From Pseudomonadota bacterium (GTDB lineage: Bacteria > Pseudomonadota > Alphaproteobacteria > Rhodobacterales > Rhodobacteraceae), in NCBI GenBank assembly GCA_963205235.1, contig CAUJIP010000038.1, positions 1 through 64,000 of the forward strand: a stretch of DNA of 64,000 nt, in the 5' to 3' direction. The translations under genes and the position numbers were made by a program. Under the pieces are notes generated by a model. It was not told where the DNA came from. It did no database searches and saw only the letters and a program-made list of their open reading frames with translations. Of this stretch, positions 15,211-43,505 are shown one piece after another (within the stretch, counting starts at the first letter, position 1; every line of letters begins with the position of its first letter).

Positions 15211-15906
15211 ATGCGACATATCGTCAGCGCCGCTTGTGGCATATGGCTTGCCGCCACCGGGGCCATTCAGGCCGAACCGGTTGTGGTGGTCGAGCTTTAC
15301 ACCTCGCAAGGGTGTTCGTCCTGTCCACCGGCGGATGAATTCATTGCGATGCTGGCCTCGGACCCGCGTATTCTGCCCTTGGCGTTGCATGTCGACTATT
15401 GGGATTACATCGGCTGGGCGGATGTTTTCGCGCAGTCCAAGTTCACCGACCGCCAGCGCGCCTATGCCAAGGCGGAAGGGTCGCGAACAATCTATACGCC
15501 GCAGCTGATCATCGGAGGGCAGGACCGGGTCGAAGGCTTTGCGCCCGAAGAAACCGCCGAACGGCTGCGCGAGCATCTGGCAGCGGGAACGCCGATCCTG
15601 CTGACCGTGACGCGCGAGGGGGATCATCTGGTGATCCGCGCCGAGGCCGACCCGCCGCTGACCGAACCGGTGCGGGTGCAATTGGTGCGCTACAAGCCGC
15701 AAGAGACCGTGATGATCGAGCGGGGCGAGAACGCGGGCCGCGCGATCACCTATACCAACATCGTCACCTCATGGCAGCGGCTGGATGACTGGTCGGGGCA
15801 AACCCCGCTGGAAGTGACGGCACCCTTCGATGGCGACGAACCGGGTGCAGTGATCATCCAGACCGAGGGACCGTCAGCCATTCTGGCAGCGGCGCGGGTC
15901 GACTGA
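15211..15906 (+). CDS. DUF1223 thioredoxin-like secreted protein
   Basis: The 231-residue product has a signal peptide ending around AIQA-EP (residues 1-21). A thioredoxin-fold start follows: VVVVELYTSQGCSSCPPAD, with Cys35 and Cys38 in a CxxC arrangement, as in DUF1223 proteins. The family contains periplasmic or secreted redox-like proteins with no settled substrate. The ATG at 15211 keeps the signal peptide at the extreme N-terminus; earlier in-frame ATGs add non-hydrophobic sequence. It is divergent from acnA and convergent with the acyltransferase gene. Confidence 0.85.
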   Translation: MRHIVSAACGIWLAATGAIQAEPVVVVELYTSQGCSSCPPADEFIAMLASDPRILPLALHVDYWDYIGWADVFAQSKFTDRQRAYAKAEGSRTIYTPQLIIGGQDRVEGFAPEETAERLREHLAAGTPILLTVTREGDHLVIRAEADPPLTEPVRVQLVRYKPQETVMIERGENAGRAITYTNIVTSWQRLDDWSGQTPLEVTAPFDGDEPGAVIIQTEGPSAILAAARVD

Positions 15907-15930
15907 CGCGGCGGTGCGCTGTAGCGCAGC

Positions 15931-16824
15931 CTACAGAGTGCCGCCCTTCCAGCGCCGGTGAATCCAGAACCATTGGCCGGGGTCGGCCAGAACACGGGTT
16001 TCAAGCGCGACGGTCACCTCACGCATCATGGTTTCGGGATCGCTTGGCGCGATGGGTGCATCCAGCGTCACGCTGAACCCCAGCCCGTCGGGCTGCCGGA
16101 TTGCAAAGAACGGGATCAGGTCGGCCTTCAGCCGCAGCGCCAGTTCTGCGGCGGAAAGCGCAGTCCGCGCAGGGCGGCCAAGGAAGGGCAGGGCGGGTGC
16201 GCCCGGCACATCCTGATCGAACAGCAGGACCAGTTGGCCGCCCTCTTTCAGATGCCGGACAAAGCCCGCCGTCCCGGCCCGGCCTTGCGGAAACACCGGG
16301 CCGCCGAAGGCCTGCATGGTCTTGACGTAATGCGCGTTGAAGTAACGGTTGGAAAGGTTGCGATATAGCCCGCCAATCACGAAGCCTTTTGCCACAAGCG
16401 CGGCGCGCGCGGCTTCGTAGTTGCCGAAATGGCCTGACACCAGGATCACCGGACGTTTCTGGTCCCGTGCGGTCACCAGCGCCTGATAACCCAAACCTTC
16501 GGGCGTGATTTCGGCTGCACGCGCCATGAATGCCTTGGTCGAATAGTTTTCGATCAAGGTGCGTCCGGCGTTATCCAAGACCTGATCCGCGATCCGGTTG
16601 CGGTCAGTCTCGGTCTGATCTGGCCAGATCAGGTGCAGGTTTTCACGCGCCCGGGTGCGATAGCCCGCAATCGGCCCGATCACCCGGCGCATCAGCCAGC
16701 CCACAAAGGCGACCCGGACGGGGTAGGGCAACAGAAGCGCCGTACCGATCAGCCCGCGCAAGCCCAGGTTCACCGCGAAATGGTCAAGCCGGAAGGGTGG
16801 TCGGTCTTGGCCTGGGGAGGACAT
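15931..16824 (-). CDS. LpxL/HtrB-like lauroyl acyltransferase
   Basis: Members of this family add a secondary acyl chain to lipid A at the inner membrane. The 297-residue product has an N-terminal hydrophobic segment (about residues 24-45), the catalytic HX4E motif HFGNYE with His132 and Glu137, and later family segments FDQDVPGAPALPFLGRP and GSALRL-like AELALRLKADLIPFF. The donor and acceptor cannot be told from sequence, so it could act on lipid A or another glycolipid. It lies 11 bases downstream of the EamA transporter gene on the same strand. Confidence 0.85.
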   Translation of the reverse strand: MSSPGQDRPPFRLDHFAVNLGLRGLIGTALLLPYPVRVAFVGWLMRRVIGPIAGYRTRARENLHLIWPDQTETDRNRIADQVLDNAGRTLIENYSTKAFMARAAEITPEGLGYQALVTARDQKRPVILVSGHFGNYEAARAALVAKGFVIGGLYRNLSNRYFNAHYVKTMQAFGGPVFPQGRAGTAGFVRHLKEGGQLVLLFDQDVPGAPALPFLGRPARTALSAAELALRLKADLIPFFAIRQPDGLGFSVTLDAPIAPSDPETMMREVTVALETRVLADPGQWFWIHRRWKGGTL

Positions 16825-33745: not shown

Positions 33746-33868
33746 GGTTTTCCCCCGAAGCCCTTGGGCTAGAGAGGCACAGCTTTCCCGGCTTTTCAAG
33801 GCGGCCACCTGTTGCATTCCAGGCTGTTGGGCAGGAAACTCGTACCGCACGGGACAAGGGGGAATGGA

Positions 33869-35446
33869 ATGCAAGGTTTCTTCGTGGCGGGCCCCTATGA
33901 CGACGGCGATCCGGTCACCGGGCATTATTACGAGATGGCGTCGGAAGACCCTTCGCGCCCGCAGGTCTGGGGCTATAGCGACCGGCTCAGCTATGCGCCG
34001 GGTGAGACGCTTCGTCTGCATGCCATGTCCAGCGCGACCAAGGCGCGGTTGCGCATCGAAAGGGACGGCTTGACCCCGGTCACGCTGATCGACACCGAAA
34101 TCGCCACCCGCTTCGCTCCGACCCCCGCCGATTGCTCGGTTCGGGGCTGCGACTGGCCGTTGGCATTCGAAACCCTGATCCCTGCGGATTGGCAAAGCGG
34201 GGTCCATGTCGTGACCCTGACCATCGACGGCCATTCCTCGCAAGGCATGTTCGTCCTGAAGCCCATCAAGCCCAAGGCGAAGCTGGCCATGGTTCTGGCG
34301 ACCGGAACCTGGTGCGCCTATAACGACTGGGGCGGATCGAACCACTATCAGGGGCTGTGCGGTCCGACCGGGGGCGATTTTTCCGCCGAAGTCAGCCTGC
34401 TCCGCCCTTGGGCCAAGGGATTTGTCCGCTGGCCCGAGGATGCCCCGCGCATTCCGCATGCCTCGCCGCTGCTGTCGCGTCCGGCCTATCCGCATATGGA
34501 CTATGCCCGCACGAAGGGGATTTCCAAGAAATACGCCTCATCGGGCTGGGCGGCGTTCGAGCGGCCCTTTGCCCTTTGGTGCGAAACCCAAGGCATCGCG
34601 CTGGACTATTTCACCCAGCACGACCTGCACTCCGACCCCGCCTGTCTGGACGGATATGCCCGCGCGGTGATCGTCGGCCATGACGAATACTGGACCTGGG
34701 AAATGCGCGACCATCTGGACGGCTGGCTGGACCGGGGCGGGCAACTGGCACGGTTCGGCGGCAATTTCTTCTGGCAGACCCGGCTGTCGGCGGACCTGCT
34801 GACCCAGACCTGCCACAAGGCGCGGGCCGAGGCCGAGGACCCGCTGGCCCAAACCGACCGGATCACCAGCTACTGGGACCATCCCCGCGCCGCGCGGCCT
34901 GCGGTGGCCACGATGGGCCTGACCGGGTCCATGGGCGTCTATGCCGGGTGGAGCCGCTGTGCCGCGCATGGCTCCGGCGGGTTCACCATCTATCGCCCCG
35001 ACCATTGGGTCATGCAGGGCACCGGGCTTGGCTATGGCGATGTGCTGGGGGCTGCCTCGAAGATCTTTGGCTATGAGGTGGACGGGATCGACTACGAAAC
35101 CCGCAAGGGCCTGCCATACCCCGCCGATGGCACGGGCTTGCAGGGGGAACTGACCATCGTTGGCCTGTCCCTTGCCACCACGCTGTCGCACTCCACCGGA
35201 CGCCATGACGAGGATCACTTCATCGGCACGCTGGATGCCGAGGAAGTGGCGATGACGATCTATGGCGAGATCACGTCCGAAACCCTTGGCCTTGCCAGCC
35301 GAGGCAACGGTTGCATGGCCGAATACCGGCGGGGCAAGGGGGCGGTGTTCAATGCGGCGTCCTGTGAATGGGTTGCGGGCCTGATCGCCCGCGAACGCCC
35401 GGTCGAGGTGGTGACGCGGAACCTGCTGCAGGGCGACTGGGGCTGA
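33869..35446 (+). CDS. N,N-dimethylformamidase large-subunit-like protein
   Basis: The 525-residue product matches the beta-subunit-type domain of N,N-dimethylformamidase: an Ig-like N-terminal part (GETLRLHAMSS, SGVHVVTLTIDGH), then GTWCAYNDWGGSNHY and VIVGHDEYWTWEMRDHLDGW. The HxE of VGHDEYW (His271, Glu273) corresponds to the iron ligands I recall for DMFase; a conserved Tyr (perhaps Tyr151) would complete the site. It is shorter than the characterised DmfA2 and no small alpha subunit is adjacent, so an amidohydrolase acting on another amide is possible. It is divergent from the DAO oxidoreductase. Confidence 0.75.
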   Translation: MQGFFVAGPYDDGDPVTGHYYEMASEDPSRPQVWGYSDRLSYAPGETLRLHAMSSATKARLRIERDGLTPVTLIDTEIATRFAPTPADCSVRGCDWPLAFETLIPADWQSGVHVVTLTIDGHSSQGMFVLKPIKPKAKLAMVLATGTWCAYNDWGGSNHYQGLCGPTGGDFSAEVSLLRPWAKGFVRWPEDAPRIPHASPLLSRPAYPHMDYARTKGISKKYASSGWAAFERPFALWCETQGIALDYFTQHDLHSDPACLDGYARAVIVGHDEYWTWEMRDHLDGWLDRGGQLARFGGNFFWQTRLSADLLTQTCHKARAEAEDPLAQTDRITSYWDHPRAARPAVATMGLTGSMGVYAGWSRCAAHGSGGFTIYRPDHWVMQGTGLGYGDVLGAASKIFGYEVDGIDYETRKGLPYPADGTGLQGELTIVGLSLATTLSHSTGRHDEDHFIGTLDAEEVAMTIYGEITSETLGLASRGNGCMAEYRRGKGAVFNAASCEWVAGLIARERPVEVVTRNLLQGDWG

Positions 35447-35550
35447 TCCCCGCGCCAAGCGCTGTCGCAAATCCGTGACGCTGGCGTCGTGGTCTTGTGA
35501 TCGGGTGCTGGCACCTTGTCGGGAATCGCCGCCCCGACAAAGGCCCAGTC

Positions 35551-36513
35551 ATGACCCACCAGCCCAGCCCGGAGAGCTTTGGTGACTTTTCGGTCGCGCT
35601 TGGCCTTCCCGGGCCCGTCGCCAGCTTTGACCAGCCGCCGATTTCGCCTGCCGTGACCTTCACCTATTCGCACGCGGGCCAGTCGATCTTTCGCCGTGGC
35701 CTGATCCGTGCGGTCGAGATGCTGACCGGGCAACCCCGACTGAAGCGGCTCTATCTGGACTGGGTGATCTGCGACAAACGCCCCGGAGAGCCGGTCTTTG
35801 ACGCGGCGCTGCGCAAGCTTGGCATCCGGCTCCGCATTCGGCAGGGGGCCGAACACCTGGCGACGCTGCCCGCAACAGGCGGCCTGCTTCTGGTCGCGAA
35901 CCATCCGTTCGGCGTGGTTGACGGGCTGGCCATCGGGCAGATTGGCATGCGCTTGCGCGGCAATGTGCGGATCATGACCAACAGCCTGCTCTGCCGGGTT
36001 CCCGAGGTTGATCCACACCTTCTGCCGGTCGACTTTTCGGGCACGCCCGAGGCGCGGCGCATTACCGGCGAGACCCGTCGCCGCGCGGCGGACCTGCTGG
36101 CCCAAGGCCAGACAGTCGCGATCTTTCCCGCGGGCGGGGTGGCTACGGCCAACAAGCCGCTGCGCGGGCGGGCGGTGGATTCCGCCTGGCATCCCTTTGT
36201 CGGCCGCCTTGCCACGATCCCCGGCGTGACGACCTTGCCGCTGAATATCTCGGGCCAGAACTCGCGCCTTTTCCAGATCGCCAGCCACCTGTCCTATCCG
36301 CTGCGCATCGCTTTGGTCTTTTACGAGACCTGCCGTCGCATCAATCGGCCCATCGACATCGCCGTCGGTGCCCCGATCCGGGCCGAGGAGTTGCGGCATC
36401 TGGACCGTGACGCTGTTTCGGTCGAACTCCGCCGCCGCGCCATGGCCCTTGCTGCGCCAAGCCTTGCCGACCCGGACGAGGTCTATGTCTGGCCGCCGCA
36501 TATCCGCTGGTAA
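35551..36513 (+). CDS. PlsC-like lysophospholipid acyltransferase
   Basis: The 320-residue product has the LPLAT acyltransferase core: VANHPFGVVDG with His118 and Asp124 (HX5D variant), the acceptor-site FPAGGVATA, and PLNISGQNSRLF. The HX5D spacing and NHPFG wording are typical of the group that includes OlsA/OlsF-type and hemolysin-associated acyltransferases rather than the HX4D of PlsC. The acceptor lipid is unknown. The ATG at 35551 fits the spacing; an in-frame codon at 35497 adds unlike sequence. It follows the formamidase-like gene by about 100 bases. Confidence 0.8.
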   Translation: MTHQPSPESFGDFSVALGLPGPVASFDQPPISPAVTFTYSHAGQSIFRRGLIRAVEMLTGQPRLKRLYLDWVICDKRPGEPVFDAALRKLGIRLRIRQGAEHLATLPATGGLLLVANHPFGVVDGLAIGQIGMRLRGNVRIMTNSLLCRVPEVDPHLLPVDFSGTPEARRITGETRRRAADLLAQGQTVAIFPAGGVATANKPLRGRAVDSAWHPFVGRLATIPGVTTLPLNISGQNSRLFQIASHLSYPLRIALVFYETCRRINRPIDIAVGAPIRAEELRHLDRDAVSVELRRRAMALAAPSLADPDEVYVWPPHIRW

Positions 36514-36691: not shown

Positions 36692-39574
36692 ATGGTTTCG
36701 AACAAAAAGACGCGAATTCTGGCCATCGGCGGTGGCGTTGGAACAATCACGGCACTTTTCGCCCTGACCCGGCTGCCTGACTGGCAAGACCGGTTTGACA
36801 TCACCGTCTATCAGCTTGGCTGGCGGCTGGGTGGCAAGGGGGCCAGCGGCCGGAACGCCGCCCAAGGCGAGCGGATCGAAGAACACGGTCTGCATGTCTG
36901 GGGCGGCTTCTATGACAACGCCTTCCGCAATCTGCGCGACTGCTATGGCGAATTGCTGCGTCTTGGCCTGCGCAAGCCCGACGCACCGCTTGGCACGATG
37001 GACAAGGCCTTCAAACCGCTGCGCCATCTTTTCCTGTCGGAAGACGTGCCCAAGGCCGATGGAACCGGCATTGACTGGCGGCCCTGGCTGATCGACCTGC
37101 CGGGCAATGACCAGATCCCCGGATCGGCAACCACGGCCCCGACGCCGTTCGAGATGTTCCGCCGAGTGGTGGAAATCGTGCTGGAATTCATCGCGCGCCA
37201 CGAACTTGAAGATGCATCGCGTTTGACCGCAGGGCTACAAACTGCCGGGAACCGGCTTCGCGATGGTCTTGCTGCGCTGTCTGACCGTCCAAGCCTGCAC
37301 TTGCCTTCGCAGCGGTCCCTGTTGGCCGACTTGATCAACGATGCGCAAAAGGCCGTTCATGCCCGGATGACGCCCGCAGCCATTCAGGACGACGCGCAGC
37401 GCCGGATCCTGATGCTCGCTGACCTTGGCCTTGCCTATGCGCATGGCATGGCGGCCTCGGATGCCTTTACCCAAGGCTATGACGTGCTGGACCAGTGGGA
37501 GTTTACCGACTGGCTGCGTGCCAACGGGGCCAGTGAACTGGCCTTGAAATCAGTGCTGGTCCGGGGCTGCTATGATTTTGTCTTCGGCTTTTCTGCCGGA
37601 AACATTCATCAGGCAAACGTCGGCGCAGGCACGGCGGCACGGGCGATGGGGCGGCTGGTGCTGGCCTATTCGGGCGCGATCTTTCAGAAGATGCAGGCCG
37701 GAATGGGCGACACGATCTTTGCGCCCTATTATCAGGTGCTGGAAAAGATCGGCGTCAAGTTCCGGTTCTTCCACGCCGCTACTGCCCTGCGCCTTTCTCA
37801 GACGGGAACCGACATCGGGGCTGTCGAACTGGTTCGGCAAGCCGAGGTTATCAAGGGCGACTACCAACCGCTACGCGACGTGAAAGGCCTGCCTTGCTGG
37901 CCGTCCGAACCCGATTGGGACCAACTGGTCGATGGTGCGGCGCTGCGGGCCTCCGGGATCAATTTCGAATGCGAGGCCGAGCCGCCCAAGGGCACGCCCA
38001 TGGTTCTGCGGCTGGGTGAGGATTTCGACAAGGTCTTGCTTGGTGCGTCGCTTGGTTCGCTGCCGCCCATGACGCGGGACCTTGCCGCCGTCTCGCCGCG
38101 CTGGGCGCAGATGCTGGGGTCGCTGCAGACCGTGGGCACGCAGGCCGCGCAGTTCTGGCTGGACAAAAGCTTTGCCGACATGGGCTGGGACGCAAAGGTC
38201 GCCAAGCACAACAACCCCAAGGCGATTCCCAAAAGCCCGCTGCAGACCATTATGACAGGCTTTGCCGAGCCGCTGGATACCGTGGCAGACATGAGCCACC
38301 TGATCCCGGTCGAGGATTGGGCGGGCACGGGTCCCACCTCGATTTCCTATTTCTGTTCACCTGCACCCGAAGGGCAGACGCTGGAGAAGTTCACCACTGA
38401 AGTTCGCGACTGGGTGACAAAGGACCTGCCCGCGCTTTGGCCCAAGGCGGACCCGGTGCCGTTCCATCAGGGCGGGTTGGAAGACCAGTATCTGCGCGTC
38501 AACATGTTCGGATCGGAACGCTATGTCCTGTCGGTCAAGGGCAGCCTTTACCACCGCCTCGCACCGGGCGAGAGCGGGTTTTACAACCTTGTCCTTGCCG
38601 GAGACTGGACACGTTCCGGCCTGAACGCAGGCTGTGTTGAAGGGGCCACGATGTCGGGCATCGCCGCCGCATCCGCCCTGTCTGGGGCAAAGCTTCTGAA
38701 CGTCGGCGCGGATGACCTTGCCGATGGCGGCACCGCCACCGATATCGCCGCCTTCAAGACCCTTTCGGTGACCGGTGCCAACTGGCCGTTGACCGGGTTT
38801 TACGCGCGTGGGGAAATGACCGGCTGGTTCGTCTTTTACGCAATGCCCCGGCATGAGGTCGCAAAGCTGTTGCCGAAAGGTGTCGTCCTTGGCCATTCCT
38901 CGATGGTTCCCGCGGGCATGCATCCGGTCGGCATGTCCTTTTGCCGCTACCACAACGTGCGCAGTTCCTTCCTGCCGCAATTCCTTGGCTTTCCGCCCTA
39001 TAGCGAGGCGACCTTCGCCATTCCCGACTGCCGCACCGATGAAGGTGGACCTGCGCCGTTCCTTTACCCCCGCAAGCTTTACGTCGACAATGCCGCGGCC
39101 ATCATGGCGGGCAAGGTCTTCTATGCGATGAACAAATCCCGCGCGACGCTGGGATGGGAGGAAGCCGGCTTTACTGGATCAACCCCTGATGGGCTGATGA
39201 TCGACAGCCAGTTCATTCAGACCGACGATCCCGTCAGCCTTGCAGGCCACCCCGCGATGGGGGCGGTCGCGCAAATGCTTGGCACCGCCTTTGTGACCGA
39301 CAGCCAGCGCTGCCGGAAACTGCTTTACAACGCCTTCGATCTGCAACTGGACAAGGCCTGGATCGCCCCGGTGCATGGCCGTGTCCGGGTCAAGGATTCC
39401 ACCCCCGGCGGCTTTGTCGATGCCGACCGCGACTTCCAGCCGTTGCTACCGGTTGCAACTCAGACCTTGCCAGGGGCCTTCAGAATATGGTGTTCATGGT
39501 CCATGACAAACCCCGCTGACAGCAAGCGGGTCCGACAAGCCGCAAAGGCGCGGAGTTTCATGGGGGGACTGTGA
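36692..39574 (+). CDS. FAD oxidoreductase fused to an acetoacetate-decarboxylase-like domain
   Basis: The 960-residue protein combines two units. Residues 1 to about 670 form a phytoene-desaturase/amine-oxidase-like flavoprotein: a dinucleotide fold start (ILAIGGGVGTITALFAL, residues 9-25), QLGWRLGGKGASGRN (41-55), EHGLHVWGGFYDN, and the C-terminal FAD motif LVLAGDWTRSGLNAGCVEGA (634-652). Residues about 695-945 resemble acetoacetate decarboxylase: PRHEVAKLLPKG, LYVDNAAAIMAGKVFYAMNKSRA, where Lys815 aligns with the Schiff-base Lys and the usual next Lys is Ser. A TTGACA at 36642 may be part of its promoter. The stop overlaps the cyclase start by four bases, so both are made together. The reaction is unknown. 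Confidence 0.8.
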   Translation: MVSNKKTRILAIGGGVGTITALFALTRLPDWQDRFDITVYQLGWRLGGKGASGRNAAQGERIEEHGLHVWGGFYDNAFRNLRDCYGELLRLGLRKPDAPLGTMDKAFKPLRHLFLSEDVPKADGTGIDWRPWLIDLPGNDQIPGSATTAPTPFEMFRRVVEIVLEFIARHELEDASRLTAGLQTAGNRLRDGLAALSDRPSLHLPSQRSLLADLINDAQKAVHARMTPAAIQDDAQRRILMLADLGLAYAHGMAASDAFTQGYDVLDQWEFTDWLRANGASELALKSVLVRGCYDFVFGFSAGNIHQANVGAGTAARAMGRLVLAYSGAIFQKMQAGMGDTIFAPYYQVLEKIGVKFRFFHAATALRLSQTGTDIGAVELVRQAEVIKGDYQPLRDVKGLPCWPSEPDWDQLVDGAALRASGINFECEAEPPKGTPMVLRLGEDFDKVLLGASLGSLPPMTRDLAAVSPRWAQMLGSLQTVGTQAAQFWLDKSFADMGWDAKVAKHNNPKAIPKSPLQTIMTGFAEPLDTVADMSHLIPVEDWAGTGPTSISYFCSPAPEGQTLEKFTTEVRDWVTKDLPALWPKADPVPFHQGGLEDQYLRVNMFGSERYVLSVKGSLYHRLAPGESGFYNLVLAGDWTRSGLNAGCVEGATMSGIAAASALSGAKLLNVGADDLADGGTATDIAAFKTLSVTGANWPLTGFYARGEMTGWFVFYAMPRHEVAKLLPKGVVLGHSSMVPAGMHPVGMSFCRYHNVRSSFLPQFLGFPPYSEATFAIPDCRTDEGGPAPFLYPRKLYVDNAAAIMAGKVFYAMNKSRATLGWEEAGFTGSTPDGLMIDSQFIQTDDPVSLAGHPAMGAVAQMLGTAFVTDSQRCRKLLYNAFDLQLDKAWIAPVHGRVRVKDSTPGGFVDADRDFQPLLPVATQTLPGAFRIWCSWSMTNPADSKRVRQAAKARSFMGGL

Positions 39575-42366
39575 TCGTGACCGCTCCGGCAGCAACGGGC
39601 GTCGGCGACAAGGCCGAACGCCGGATCTTGACGATTTGCTTCGTCGATCTGGTGGCCTCGACCGAAATGGCCGAACGGCTGGGGCTTGAGGATTACGATG
39701 CCACGTTGCAGGGTTTTCATGCGCTGACCGCGCGGGTCTTTGCCGCCTTCCGTGGTCGCGTCATCCAGCATTACGGCGATGGGGTGCTGGCCTGTTTCGG
39801 CATTGATGAAGGCCCCGAAGATGCCGCGCTGACCGGACTTGGCTGTGCTTTGGCAATGGTGGACACCGTGTCAAAGGACCTGCCCGGTTGCGTCGCGCGG
39901 GCGGGCTTGCATGCCGGAACCTTCCTGTGCCGCGTCGGGGCGGGCGATGACGGGCGTCCGCAACTGTCCGGGCTTGACCTTAACATCGCCGCAAGGGTCC
40001 AGGGCGAGGCGGGACCGGGTAAGGTCATGGCCTCGGACCGGTTCGCCGGTTTTGTCAGCCGCTTGGCGAAACTGGAGGTGTCCGAAACGCGGTCCGTCCG
40101 GTTCAAGGGCACCTCGACCGACACGACCGTGCATGAAATCCACGGCTTCAAGGTCGTCCGCCCCGATCACGGCACCTCTCGCCTGCTGGAACGTGAGACG
40201 CTGGTCCGGGAATGCCTGAACGGCGATACGCACCGGTTTTTGCTGGTCGGTCCGGCAGGGATCGGAAAATCGGCGCTGGCGCAGGCCCTGATGGCGCAGG
40301 CCGGGATCGGTCGGGCAACTGTGCCGCTAAGCGCGCGCAGCAACCTGACCCGCTCGCCACTTCTGCCCGTCACCGAATGGCTGCGCGGTATGTTGCCGGG
40401 GCAGGGCTCCCTTGCCGATCAGCTTGCCGCACGTGGCATCACGCTGGCCCCAGCCTTGCACGACGGTCTGGCCGAAATCCTTGACCCCGCCCGCGTGGCG
40501 ATCCCGCACCCGGAGTTTTCGCTGCAACTGCGCCGTCAGAACCGGATCGAGGCGGCAGTTGCCCTGCTCACAGACCGGCTTGCCGACCCCCTGTCGCTTT
40601 TGTTCTTCGACGATTTCCACTGGTGCGACGCCGACACGCGCGAAGTGATCGGTCGGTTGATGAAGGCGGGACCCGAGGTTGCAGGCCGCGTGATCATCCT
40701 GTCGCGCCCGACGCCCGAAGTGATGGACCACGCCCGCGCCGAGGGATTCGAGACCGTGCAGGTTCCGCCCCTGTCGGCAGAAGCCTCGCGCCAAGTGATG
40801 CAGGACGAGATTCAGGAAAGCTTTTCCGCCGCGGTCGAGGCCCGTCTGGTTGAAGTCGCAGGCGGCAACCCGCTGTTTCTGCGTGCCCTTGCCCGTGCCG
40901 AAAAGCTTAACCCTTCGGTCGAAGGCCAGTCGCTGCCGCCCCCCACCATCGAAGCCACGATCCAGCATCTGCTGGAGGAACTGCGCACCCTGAAGGAAAC
41001 CGTGCTGACCGCCGCCGTCATCGGTCGCAACTTTCGGCTGGAGCATCTGAAACACCTGATCGACGACGATGTCGATCTGGCCGCCCACGGGGCCGAACTG
41101 ATCAAGCTTGGCATACTTGAAGCTGAGCCGCAGGGCTTTGGCTTTCACCACATCCTTCTGCGCGACTGTGCCTACAACATGCTGCCCGCCCGGCGCAGGC
41201 GGCAGTTGCATGGCCGGTTCGCCGGTGTTTTGCAGCAACATTACCCGGACGAAGCCGCCGCTTATCCGGAACTTGTGGCCGACCACTACCTGCAAGCCGA
41301 AGCGATGGCCGAAGCGGTTGCTCCTCGCATGGCCGCAGGCATCAAATTCCTTGGCAGCGCCACCTTCGACGCCGCCTCGACCTATCTGGAACAGGCGCTT
41401 TCGGTGCTGTCCTCGGTTCCAGACCCCGACAAGCCGACCAGCGACGCGCTTATTCAGGCGCAAACCCTGCTGGGCGCGACCAAGGTGCAGCGCTTTGGCT
41501 TTTCCCATCCCGAGGTCGCCAAGGCCTATGACGAACTGGATGCCAGCGTCACCCGGTTGAACGCTGGCAGCCGGGCGCGGATGTACGCGCTGTACGGGAT
41601 TTTCGCCAAGACCACGATCGGCGGCCGGATGCACGAAAGCGCCGAGCTTCTGGCGACAATGCAGCGCGTCGCCAATCCGGATTCGTCCGAAGAACAGATC
41701 CTTTATCTGACCAACAAGACCGCGCATCTGATGTATTCCGGCGCGCTTGACGCCGCGCTGCAGGCCGGGGACGAACTGAAGGCGATCTATGACCCCGCCC
41801 AGCATGGCCAGCTTTTCTATCTTCTGGGGGCCGATCCGCTGGTTTCGGTCCTGTCGGCGGAATGCCACATCAACATCCTGCTTGGCCGCAAGGATCAGGG
41901 CATGGCGGCACTGAAGGCTGCTCTTGACCAGATCGACCGTGTCGGTGCGCGCCTGCAACTGCCATGGGTCCATGTCTTTGCCGCGCAGGCCTTTTGCCTG
42001 ACTGGCGACCGCGCAGCCTTTGACCAGCACCTTGAAACCGGGCTTGGCTATGCCGCCACGCAGGGCCACGCCTTCTGGACGGTGATCGGTCAGCTTTGGA
42101 AAAGCATGGATGCGGTCTGGCAGGGCCACACCGCTGCGGGCGAGGCGGGGCTTTCCCAGCTTATGCCGGTGGCCGATGCCATCGGGTTGCAGCTTGGCTG
42201 GCCGGTCTATGCCTCGGCCCAGGCGCAGGCCCTTGCAGCGCGGGGCGAGGTCGATGCCGCGCGCGAACTTGCGCAGGCGGCTGTCGATCGGATGGACGCC
42301 CAAGGCGAACGCATCTGGGAACGGCGGGTGATCCTGACGCGCGATGCCCTGATGGCCATGGTCTAA
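39571..42366 (+). CDS. Class III nucleotide cyclase with AAA ATPase and TPR-like C-terminus
   Basis: The 931-residue protein starts at a GTG inside the GTGA overlap. Residues about 15-190 are a class III cyclase homology domain with both metal Asp (Asp26 in CFVDLVAST, Asp70 in HYGDGVLACF) and the Asn138/Arg142 pair in LNIAARVQ, so it should be active, with ATP the likelier substrate. An AAA/STAND ATPase follows with Walker A GPAGIGKS (227-234) and Walker B LSLLFFDDFH (341-350). The remainder is helical repeat like TPR solenoids. This is the architecture of STAND-type cyclases that sense protein or small-molecule input. It is cytosolic; no membrane segment is visible. Confidence 0.88.
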   Translation: MIVTAPAATGVGDKAERRILTICFVDLVASTEMAERLGLEDYDATLQGFHALTARVFAAFRGRVIQHYGDGVLACFGIDEGPEDAALTGLGCALAMVDTVSKDLPGCVARAGLHAGTFLCRVGAGDDGRPQLSGLDLNIAARVQGEAGPGKVMASDRFAGFVSRLAKLEVSETRSVRFKGTSTDTTVHEIHGFKVVRPDHGTSRLLERETLVRECLNGDTHRFLLVGPAGIGKSALAQALMAQAGIGRATVPLSARSNLTRSPLLPVTEWLRGMLPGQGSLADQLAARGITLAPALHDGLAEILDPARVAIPHPEFSLQLRRQNRIEAAVALLTDRLADPLSLLFFDDFHWCDADTREVIGRLMKAGPEVAGRVIILSRPTPEVMDHARAEGFETVQVPPLSAEASRQVMQDEIQESFSAAVEARLVEVAGGNPLFLRALARAEKLNPSVEGQSLPPPTIEATIQHLLEELRTLKETVLTAAVIGRNFRLEHLKHLIDDDVDLAAHGAELIKLGILEAEPQGFGFHHILLRDCAYNMLPARRRRQLHGRFAGVLQQHYPDEAAAYPELVADHYLQAEAMAEAVAPRMAAGIKFLGSATFDAASTYLEQALSVLSSVPDPDKPTSDALIQAQTLLGATKVQRFGFSHPEVAKAYDELDASVTRLNAGSRARMYALYGIFAKTTIGGRMHESAELLATMQRVANPDSSEEQILYLTNKTAHLMYSGALDAALQAGDELKAIYDPAQHGQLFYLLGADPLVSVLSAECHINILLGRKDQGMAALKAALDQIDRVGARLQLPWVHVFAAQAFCLTGDRAAFDQHLETGLGYAATQGHAFWTVIGQLWKSMDAVWQGHTAAGEAGLSQLMPVADAIGLQLGWPVYASAQAQALAARGEVDAARELAQAAVDRMDAQGERIWERRVILTRDALMAMV

Positions 42367-42794: not shown

Positions 42795-43505
42795 ATGACC
42801 GATATGGTCAGGCCAGACGTTTTTGCGCTGTTTCCCGTGTTCGCGGGGCTGGAAGCAGACACCCGTGCGGATCTGGCAAGGCTGGGCTTCAGCCATCGCT
42901 GGACGGCCGGGCAATTGATCTTTCAGCGCGGCGACAGTGATGACCGGATGATTGCCGTCCTGTCGGGCCGAATCCGGCTGTCACTGATGACCCCGCAGGG
43001 CCGCGAACTGGTGCTGACCTCGGTCGGACCGGGGGAAGTGCTGGGCGAACTGGCGCTTCTGGACGGCGAACCACGCTCGACCGACGCCATGGCGACCGAG
43101 ACGACGACAGCAATCCTTCTGACACGCGAACGGTTCATGCAGGTGGCACGCCAGCGGGCCGATCTGCCGCTTGCGATTGCAAGGCACGTTTGCGGTCATT
43201 TGCGCCGGGCGACGTTCCAGATGGAATCCATCGCGCTTTACGATCTGCAAGGCCGTCTTGTCCGCTATCTTCTGATGGCCGCGCATCAGGCCAAGGGCGG
43301 CAGGGATGCCACCGAAATTCGGGTCGACCTGGGCCTGAACCAGTCGGACCTTGCCGCCGTGCTTGGTGCCACGCGGTCGCGCGTCAACAACGCGCTGCAG
43401 GACCTTGTCGCCGAAGGGGCGATCCGCCGGGATGGCGCCGCCGTGATCTGCCATATCCCCAAGCTGCGCGCCCTGTCGGACGATCTTGGTGACGTCGGTC
43501 CCTAA
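42795..43505 (+). CDS. Crp/Fnr-family regulator with intact cyclic-nucleotide pocket
   Basis: The 236-residue product has the cNMP-binding barrel with the phosphate-binding cassette GEVLGELALLDGEPRST, whose Glu85, Arg94 and Ser95 are the residues that hold cAMP in Crp-type proteins. There is no Cys cluster as in Fnr. A dimer helix and a winged HTH follow, with LNQSDLAAVLGATRSRVNNAL as the recognition region, unlike the E-x-x-S-R of Fnr. It is therefore expected to be cAMP-responsive, although its DNA motif may differ from TGTGA. It lies downstream of the predicted cyclase on the same strand. It converges with the ArsR-type repressor gene. Confidence 0.88.
   Translation: MTDMVRPDVFALFPVFAGLEADTRADLARLGFSHRWTAGQLIFQRGDSDDRMIAVLSGRIRLSLMTPQGRELVLTSVGPGEVLGELALLDGEPRSTDAMATETTTAILLTRERFMQVARQRADLPLAIARHVCGHLRRATFQMESIALYDLQGRLVRYLLMAAHQAKGGRDATEIRVDLGLNQSDLAAVLGATRSRVNNALQDLVAEGAIRRDGAAVICHIPKLRALSDDLGDVGP

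What the first reader, a model, noticed from the sequence alone, without database searches (positions are those of the whole stretch)
36692..39574. Fusion of an FAD oxidase with an acetoacetate-decarboxylase-like domain
The decarboxylase-like part keeps a Lys (815) at the Schiff-base position but lost the neighbouring Lys that lowers its pKa. Joined to a phytoene-desaturase-like flavoprotein, it suggests consecutive oxidation and C-C cleavage, or a binding role. I know of no characterised enzyme of this make-up.
Basis: partly seen in the sequence, partly recalled or inferred. Interest (0 to 1): 0.75.

Follow-up and report, generated by a model that had tools for sequence, protein, structure and literature searches.

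The report
Desaturase–decarboxylase fusion beside nucleotide cyclase
A bacterial gene joins a carotenoid-desaturase-like flavin enzyme to a domain of the acetoacetate decarboxylase fold that keeps its reactive lysine, and because distant bacteria keep the same pair side by side or fused in either order, often next to a signalling gene, it looks like an unstudied lipid-modifying unit rather than a sequencing accident.

Summary
Window 36692-39574 (+) is one intact 960-residue ORF: residues about 1-675 fold like plant phytoene desaturase, about 698-960 like the acetoacetate decarboxylase (ADC) superfamily. Lys815 is at the Schiff-base position and is K in 36 of 36 related ADC domains; Glu772 is E in 31, D in 5. 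The neighbouring Lys is present in only 4 of 36, so its absence is the family norm. The join is no artefact: of 43 loci, 28 carry FAD-ADC, 3 the reverse order ADC-FAD, 5 separate nearby genes, 7 no ADC. A Crp-type cyclic-nucleotide-binding gene follows in the window. Best reading: the flavin half oxidises a lipophilic, probably isoprenoid, substrate, and Lys815 forms an imine with the resulting carbonyl, within a cyclic-nucleotide operon. Substrate and reaction are inferred, not shown.

The parts
36692..38716 (+). N-terminal flavoprotein half of the fusion, residues 1-675, phytoene-desaturase-like fold (GGGVG at residues 13-17, GWRLGGKGASGR at 43-54)
   Evidence: Pfam Amino_oxidase; model pLDDT 89; best PDB fold match rice phytoene desaturase 5mog; invariant residues in 20- and 38-row alignments. 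FAD binding itself is inferred from fold and motifs
38717..38782 (+). linker, residues 676-697, low confidence in the model (678-687 under 50)
38783..39571 (+). C-terminal acetoacetate-decarboxylase-superfamily domain, residues 698-960
   Evidence: Pfam ADC 7e-4, under cut-off; family profile matches PDB chains 3bgt, 3c8w, 5upb, 6eej, 4zbo (E 2e-4 to 3e-3) and 3bh2 (0.04); model pLDDT 91.7 and 24 of 24 Foldseek chains with E <= 0.001 in the ADC superfamily
39005..39007 (+). Glu772 codon, probable position of the active-site Glu (Glu76 of ADC)
   Evidence: E in 31, D in 5 of 36 domains; E in 21 of 21 rows of A6; equivalence to Glu76 inferred from the alignment and PMC4520260
39134..39136 (+). 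Lys815 codon, predicted Schiff-base lysine
   Evidence: K in 36 of 36 domains; aligned with the first K of PKK in solved ADC-fold chains
39571..42366 (+). partner gene: class III nucleotide cyclase + AAA_16 ATPase (931 aa), starts inside the end of the fusion (4-base overlap)
   Evidence: Pfam Guanylate_cyc 8e-8 and AAA_16 2e-13; homologue immediately downstream in 26 of 27 fusions; only match of this protein in its own genome; motifs FVDLVAST, HYGDGVLA, NIAAR and a Walker A present (motif meanings recalled)
42795..43505 (+). possible effector: Crp/Fnr-type regulator with cyclic-nucleotide-binding domain
   Evidence: Pfam cNMP_binding 5e-21 and HTH_Crp_2 6e-14; a Crp-type gene lies in 19 of 27 fused loci, in 12 of them downstream on the same strand

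Best explanation
It is a two-domain enzyme of a conserved operon for which I found no description. Shown by calculation: a phytoene-desaturase-fold flavoprotein joined to an ADC-fold domain with an invariant Lys and a conserved acidic residue, co-oriented and overlapping with a cyclase-AAA gene and followed by a cyclic-nucleotide-binding regulator. Inferred: the flavin half removes hydrogen from a lipophilic, most likely isoprenoid, substrate and leaves a carbonyl or conjugated enone; this passes to the second half, where Lys815 forms an imine and Glu772 moves protons, giving double-bond migration, aldol/retro-aldol chemistry or decarboxylation. Also inferred: the product or its absence is read by the cyclase-AAA protein, whose cyclic nucleotide acts on the Crp-type regulator.
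For: Folds of both halves. Lys815 36 of 36, Glu772 E 31 / D 5 of 36. Coupling: of 43 loci 28 have FAD-ADC, 3 the reverse order, 5 a separate ADC gene, 7 no ADC found; L081 and L083 (reverse order) and L086 pass Pfam's ADC cut-off (39.2, 33.5, 32.5 against 29.8), and Pfam's ADC model matches 24 of the 38 rows of A3 at E <= 0.01, 26 of these rows being fusions. The two orders imply at least two separate joinings (inferred). In the plasmid collection the 9 records with the Catenovulum-type ADC are all among the 11 with the flavoprotein, though 8 of the 9 are Azospirillum. Lipophilic substrate: fold of phytoene desaturase; nearest NCBIfam models HpnE and carotenoid desaturases, far under their cut-offs; polyprenyl synthetase genes after the flavoprotein in L057 and L064 and a FadL-type gene beside it in Azospirillum. 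[quoted passage not shown]); an ADC-family NXD1 homologue rises in cyanobacterial lipid droplets under nitrogen starvation (PMC12923008). Signalling link: 26 of 27 direct downstream neighbours; 36 of 43 loci with a cyclase- or kinase-AAA relative within 5 kb; cNMP-binding genes.
Against: No substrate, product or activity is known. The window's ADC domain is under Pfam's cut-off, and Foldseek TM scores to solved ADC folds are 0.48-0.57 with rmsd 5-9. Seven of 43 loci have no ADC found (L023, L057, L059, L060, L063, L065, L085), and three of these (L023, L063, L085) have another shared partner gene instead. Seven have no cyclase/kinase-AAA neighbour (L022, L060, L064, L065, L081, L082, L083), among them all three reverse-order fusions, so neither partner is obligatory. 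The N-x-A-x-R cyclase pattern was found in 17 of 34 listed cyclase-profile ORFs by a simple pattern search, so cyclase activity may not be general. Six of 27 fused loci show no Crp-type or larger cNMP-binding gene in the stretch held, 7 of the 19 Crp genes are not downstream on the same strand, and the Crp base rate was not measured. Polyprenyl synthetase was seen in only 2 loci, neither a fusion. No convincing Crp site was seen upstream.
Confidence: 0.5

Rival explanations
1. The ADC domain is a binding or sensing module: Lys815 holds a carbonyl lipid (reversible imine) without turnover, and the fusion is a ligand-producing or ligand-holding sensor for the cyclase.
For: Close, conserved coupling to cyclase-AAA genes; residue 816 unconstrained.
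Against: A conserved acidic residue at 772 besides Lys815 looks catalytic; ADC genes or domains also occur without such a neighbour (L022, L064, L081-L083).
Confidence: 0.22
2. An ordinary carotenoid or hopanoid flavoprotein (desaturase or HpnE type) with a C-terminal domain of no catalytic importance.
For: Best fold match is phytoene desaturase; best NCBIfam model is HpnE.
Against: Far under the equivalog cut-offs (HpnE 42.4 of 283 bits); flavoprotein half about 200 residues longer than 5mog; ADC domain kept with an invariant Lys across deep divergence and in reverse order.
Confidence: 0.15
3. A defence or stress-response module (Pycsar-like) in which the cyclase signals to cNMP-binding effectors and the flavoprotein is an auxiliary.
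For: PADLOC PycC matches of the cyclase (3.5e-6 in the window, 6.5e-14 in L054), Pyc effector matches of the cNMP domains, TIR protein in L064, and kinase models such as PD-T4-6 (5.4e-42) for the kinase part of the L063 neighbour.
Against: These matches cover general cyclase, cNMP, TIR and kinase domains (my reading of the matched ranges); the fusion itself matches no PADLOC model at E <= 0.001; the window's cNMP protein is a DNA-binding Crp type.
Confidence: 0.05
4. A sequencing- or assembly-related join of two unrelated genes.
For: None found.
Against: Same join in many genomes and on a complete plasmid record; both halves modelled with confidence.
Confidence: 0.01

Closest known systems
Plant/cyanobacterial-type phytoene and zeta-carotene desaturases (PDS 5mog) and hydroxysqualene dehydroxylase HpnE
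   Same: Fold of the N-terminal half and weak profile matches
   Different: 13% identity in the fold alignment, far below equivalog cut-offs, longer, and joined or linked to an ADC-fold protein
ADC superfamily: S. bingchenggensis aldolase-dehydratase (4zbo, 4zbt, 6eej), MppR (4jm3, 4jmc, 4jmd, 4jme), Swit_4259 (5upb), ADC (3bh2, 3bgt)
   Same: Fold, Schiff-base Lys, probably the Glu
   Different: Residue after the Lys not conserved; fused to a flavoprotein; substrate probably larger and lipophilic (inferred)
CLA-HY / CLA-DC of Lactiplantibacillus plantarum
   Same: An oleate hydratase (FAD protein, MCRA family; recalled) and an ADC-family protein work in one lipid pathway (passages)
   Different: Separate proteins with a dehydrogenase step between; sequences not compared here. 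Four of 38 members of our family give a weak MCRA match, best 4.9e-5
TOMM-type and Ser/Thr kinase cyclase-AAA signalling proteins (TIGR03903) and Pycsar cyclases
   Same: Domain types of the partner gene and its relatives
   Different: No kinase domain was found in the window's partner; it scores 197 of 706 bits for TIGR03903; TOMM genes were not looked for

Membership tests
ADC superfamily (PF06314 fold) | ADC fold | tested here: met
   24 of 24 Foldseek chains with E <= 0.001, TM 0.48-0.57; model pLDDT 91.7
ADC superfamily (PF06314 fold) | score over Pfam's curated cut-off | tested here: not met
   19.6 of 29.8 bits for the window protein; met by relatives L081, L083, L086 but not L084
ADC superfamily (PF06314 fold) | Schiff-base lysine and partner glutamate | tested here: met
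   Lys815 36 of 36; Glu772 E 31, D 5 of 36; Glu equivalence inferred
acetoacetate decarboxylase proper | Lys-Lys pair (115/116) | tested here: not met
   Ser816 in the window protein; K in 4 of 36
acetoacetate decarboxylase proper | decarboxylates acetoacetate | not testable with these tools
   needs enzyme assay
flavin amine oxidase / desaturase superfamily (PF01593) | score over Pfam's cut-off, and fold | tested here: met
   32.0 of 19.8 bits; 5mog ranks first among 296 matches with E <= 0.001
HpnE, zeta-carotene desaturase (equivalogs) | NCBIfam equivalog cut-off | tested here: not met
   HpnE 42.4 of 283; zeta-carotene desaturase 13.7 of 622
TOMM kinase/cyclase fusion (partner gene) | TIGR03903 cut-off | tested here: not met
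   197.3 of 705.75 bits
Pycsar defence | pyrimidine cyclase with TIR or membrane effector bearing a cNMP domain (definition recalled) | tested here: inconclusive
   window: weak PycC matches and a Crp-type cNMP protein, no such effector in the operon; L054 has a membrane protein with a cNMP domain after the cyclase
CLA-DC-like lipid isomerase | isomerises an oxo fatty acid | not testable with these tools
   literature passages only

The most novel reading that the evidence does not exclude
The fusion makes, or holds as an imine on Lys815, an oxidised isoprenoid (apocarotenoid-like) carbonyl that is the ligand of the cyclase-AAA protein, so that the operon is a self-contained lipid-to-cyclic-nucleotide circuit: desaturase, Schiff-base domain, cyclase and Crp-type effector. 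For it: the cyclase gene directly follows 26 of 27 fusions and kinase- or cyclase-AAA relatives lie beside unfused forms, one on a Bacteroidota plasmid. Against it: the three reverse-order fusions have no such neighbour, and the Bacteroidota locus has no ADC.
Probability: 0.14. Interest if true: 0.85.

Novelty: new variant of a known kind. Interest (0 to 1): 0.6.

Why it matters
Two well-known enzyme folds have been brought together more than once and in both orders, which is good evidence that they act on one substrate or in one pathway, yet I found no reaction described for the pair. The tie to a nucleotide cyclase suggests that a lipid-derived compound is produced for, or sensed by, a cyclic-nucleotide pathway. 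It is directly testable with a K815A change and lipid profiling, and it gives a handle on unassigned ADC-family genes.

Tried and rejected
Considered and dropped: sequencing join. Defence system (kept as a minor rival). A Crp site upstream of the fusion: nothing convincing, judged by eye and an inverted-repeat search. The Rufibacter gene next to the flavoprotein (L023 10195-11148) as the ADC partner: it does not align as ADC and has no Pfam match; it is instead a relative of neighbours in L063 and L085. PDB sequence search of the whole protein gave one chance match and the flavoprotein profile none. Literature searches returned no paper. ORFs of clusters c6 and c7 look, from their overlaps with the flavoprotein and cyclase genes in the coordinates, like antisense ORFs and were not counted as neighbours.

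Counts: the 43 loci are the 37 (window, L003-L006, L008, L020-L023, L048-L074) plus L081-L086. Gap lengths use the first possible start codon, so overlaps such as -535 (L058) and -223 (L008) are over-estimates. One search aligned the domains to a profile made from 30 of them, which favours the motif; MAFFT alignments without it show the same Lys. In L074 the cyclase gene is seen as two ORFs; in L068 it is cut by the contig end.
Full report
Observation. The ORF 36692-39574 (+) is intact and 960 aa long. Its N-terminal part matches Pfam Amino_oxidase (over cut-off) and its C-terminal part matches ADC under the cut-off. NCBIfam's nearest models are HpnE (42.4 of 283 bits) and zeta-carotene desaturase (13.7 of 622). 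The own genome (97.6% complete) holds no second copy at E <= 0.001 and no other PF06314 match.

Structure. AlphaFold2 on a 33-row alignment gives pLDDT 89.0 and pTM 0.82, with a short low-confidence linker at 678-687. Foldseek puts rice phytoene desaturase first (four chains of 5mog, best E 9.3e-16; next entry 2.7e-12). The C-terminal domain alone (residues 688-960; 21 rows) gives pLDDT 91.7 and pTM 0.89; the 24 chains matched with E <= 0.001 are all of the ADC superfamily, led by the S. bingchenggensis aldolase-dehydratase and MppR; TM scores are 0.48 to 0.57, so it is a remote member.

Active site. A profile of 22 ADC domains aligns Lys815 with the first Lys of the PKK motif in 3bgt, 3c8w, 5upb and 6eej. 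Of the 36 ADC domains found in the 43 loci, Lys815 is K in 36, the next residue is K in 4, and Glu772 is E in 31 and D in 5 (L022, L081, L082, L083, L086). In PMC4520260 (section 20 read) Lys115 and Glu76 are named residues of the ADC pocket; the equivalence of Glu772 and Glu76 is inferred.

Relatives. Fusions were found in 7 contigs with titles (six matched from residue 1-8 to 957-959, one cut at the contig end), in 10 of 61 near genomes including its own and on a Qingshengfaniella plasmid. The flavoprotein profile at E <= 1e-60 matches 17 of 394 genomes of the family, 5 of 398 of the phylum and 6 of 244 of the order of G784; these counts include the query's own or the centre genome. Of the 17, 13 carry a fusion do not (G409, G446, G156, G265). 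G784 is of another class than the window; that it is gammaproteobacterial is inferred from its place in the tree next to Catenovulum. Separate flavoprotein and ADC genes lie together in Azospirillum and Catenovulum and in L062, L064 and L084 (in L064 about 3 kb apart with three genes between). In L081, L082 and L083 the ADC domain comes first and the flavoprotein second (Pfam ADC 39.2 and 33.5 bits for L081 and L083). L086 is FAD-ADC, outside the main fused group of the tree. Of 47 flavoprotein ORFs, 28 are FAD-ADC, 3 ADC-FAD and 16 unfused; the best tree needs 4 changes of label, and well-supported branches force 1 (FAD-ADC), 2 (ADC-FAD) and 3 (unfused); gains and splits cannot be told apart, and the root is arbitrary. 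An earlier tree without the last six loci had the 27 fusions on one side of a branch (94/98). L061 sits on a long branch and its place is unsure. No ADC was found in L023, L057, L059, L060, L063, L065 and L085. In L023, L063 and L085 the flavoprotein has another neighbour in common, 268-320 aa, 41-56% identical, without Pfam match in the two tested.

Operon. The end of the fusion overlaps the start of the cyclase-AAA gene (39571-42366). In 26 of the 27 FAD-ADC loci a homologue lies directly downstream on the same strand (gap -535 to +48); in L061 it lies upstream beyond a second flavoprotein gene. In the BLAST clustering no other gene cluster recurs in more than 9 of 37 loci (Crp genes are split over clusters there), so the pair is kept while surroundings change. 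The own genome has one match to this cyclase-AAA protein. Counting all 43 loci, 36 have a cyclase- or kinase-AAA relative within 5 kb of a flavoprotein gene: the 27 above and L021, L023, L057, L059, L062, L063, L084, L085, L086 (domains confirmed with Pfam for the window, L020, L021, L023, L057, L059, L063, L084 and L086; the rest by profile). None: L022, L060, L064, L065, L081, L082, L083. Near the flavoprotein of L060 and L065 lie regulator/TPR proteins and, farther off, in L064 a TIR/TPR protein. The window's cyclase has the metal-site, N-x-A-A-R and Walker A patterns; the N-x-A-x-R pattern was found in 17 of 34 ORFs listed (meanings recalled). A Crp-type gene of 217-311 aa lies in 19 of 27 fused loci, in 12 of these downstream on the same strand; L054 and L055 have instead a larger cNMP-binding protein (ABC membrane and STAS type) right after the cyclase; 6 have none in the stretch held (L051, L052, L053, L058, L061, L068). 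Nine of the 19 were confirmed with Pfam (window and L020; seven). The base rate of Crp genes was not measured.

Substrate clues. Phytoene-desaturase fold, polyprenyl synthetase genes in L057 and L064, FadL type in Azospirillum. Literature precedents, read as passages: CLA-DC isomerises an oxo fatty acid (PMC13365329, PMC11719350); [quoted passage not shown] an ADC-family NXD1 homologue rises in Anabaena cyanoglobules under nitrogen starvation (PMC12923008). These make a lipophilic, carbonyl-forming two-step reaction the best reading; the exact chemistry is open.

Verdict. Observation confirmed, interpretation partly supported and extended. No paper on this pair came up, nor on the wider neighbourhood (open-access library only). 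One search listed 8 papers by pairs of terms; two hold both names of the pair and were looked at as passages and do not describe it there; the other six were judged from the listing. On checking, the odds of the novel case were lowered from 0.15 to 0.14 and interest from 0.62 to 0.60, because the reverse-order fusions lack the signalling neighbour and cyclase motifs are not general.

Noticed in passing
L057 11371-13210 (+) and L064 11131-12959 (+): After the flavoprotein gene come a protein of about 256-270 aa without Pfam match and a polyprenyl synthetase (E 3e-52 and 5e-54). L064 also has a second gene (15258-16484) that looks ADC-like by eye but has no Pfam match at E <= 0.1.
   Followed up: partly
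L023 10186-11148 (+), L063 8282-9193 (+), L085 11034-11840 (-): Three loci with an unfused flavoprotein, a kinase-AAA-type neighbour and no ADC share another neighbour of 268-320 aa, 41-56% identical, without Pfam match (L023, L063): perhaps an alternative partner.
   Followed up: partly
window 33812-35446 (+): Strong match to the C-terminal part of N,N-dimethylformamidase beta subunit (PF20254, 6.7e-66).
   Followed up: no
window 35497-36513 (+): Acyltransferase resembling the acyltransferase half of OlsF (107.8 of 620 bits), 178 bases upstream of the fusion; not in any cluster of three or more loci.
   Followed up: no
L074 11117-14079 (+): The cyclase-AAA gene downstream of the fusion is seen as two ORFs of 173 and 780 aa; whether natural or a sequencing fault is unknown.
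   Followed up: no
L059 1849-6143 (-), L061 7944-12855 (+), L021 7995-14684, L062 7645-12846: Several loci carry two divergent flavoprotein paralogues near each other, which may mean two related oxidation steps.
   Followed up: partly
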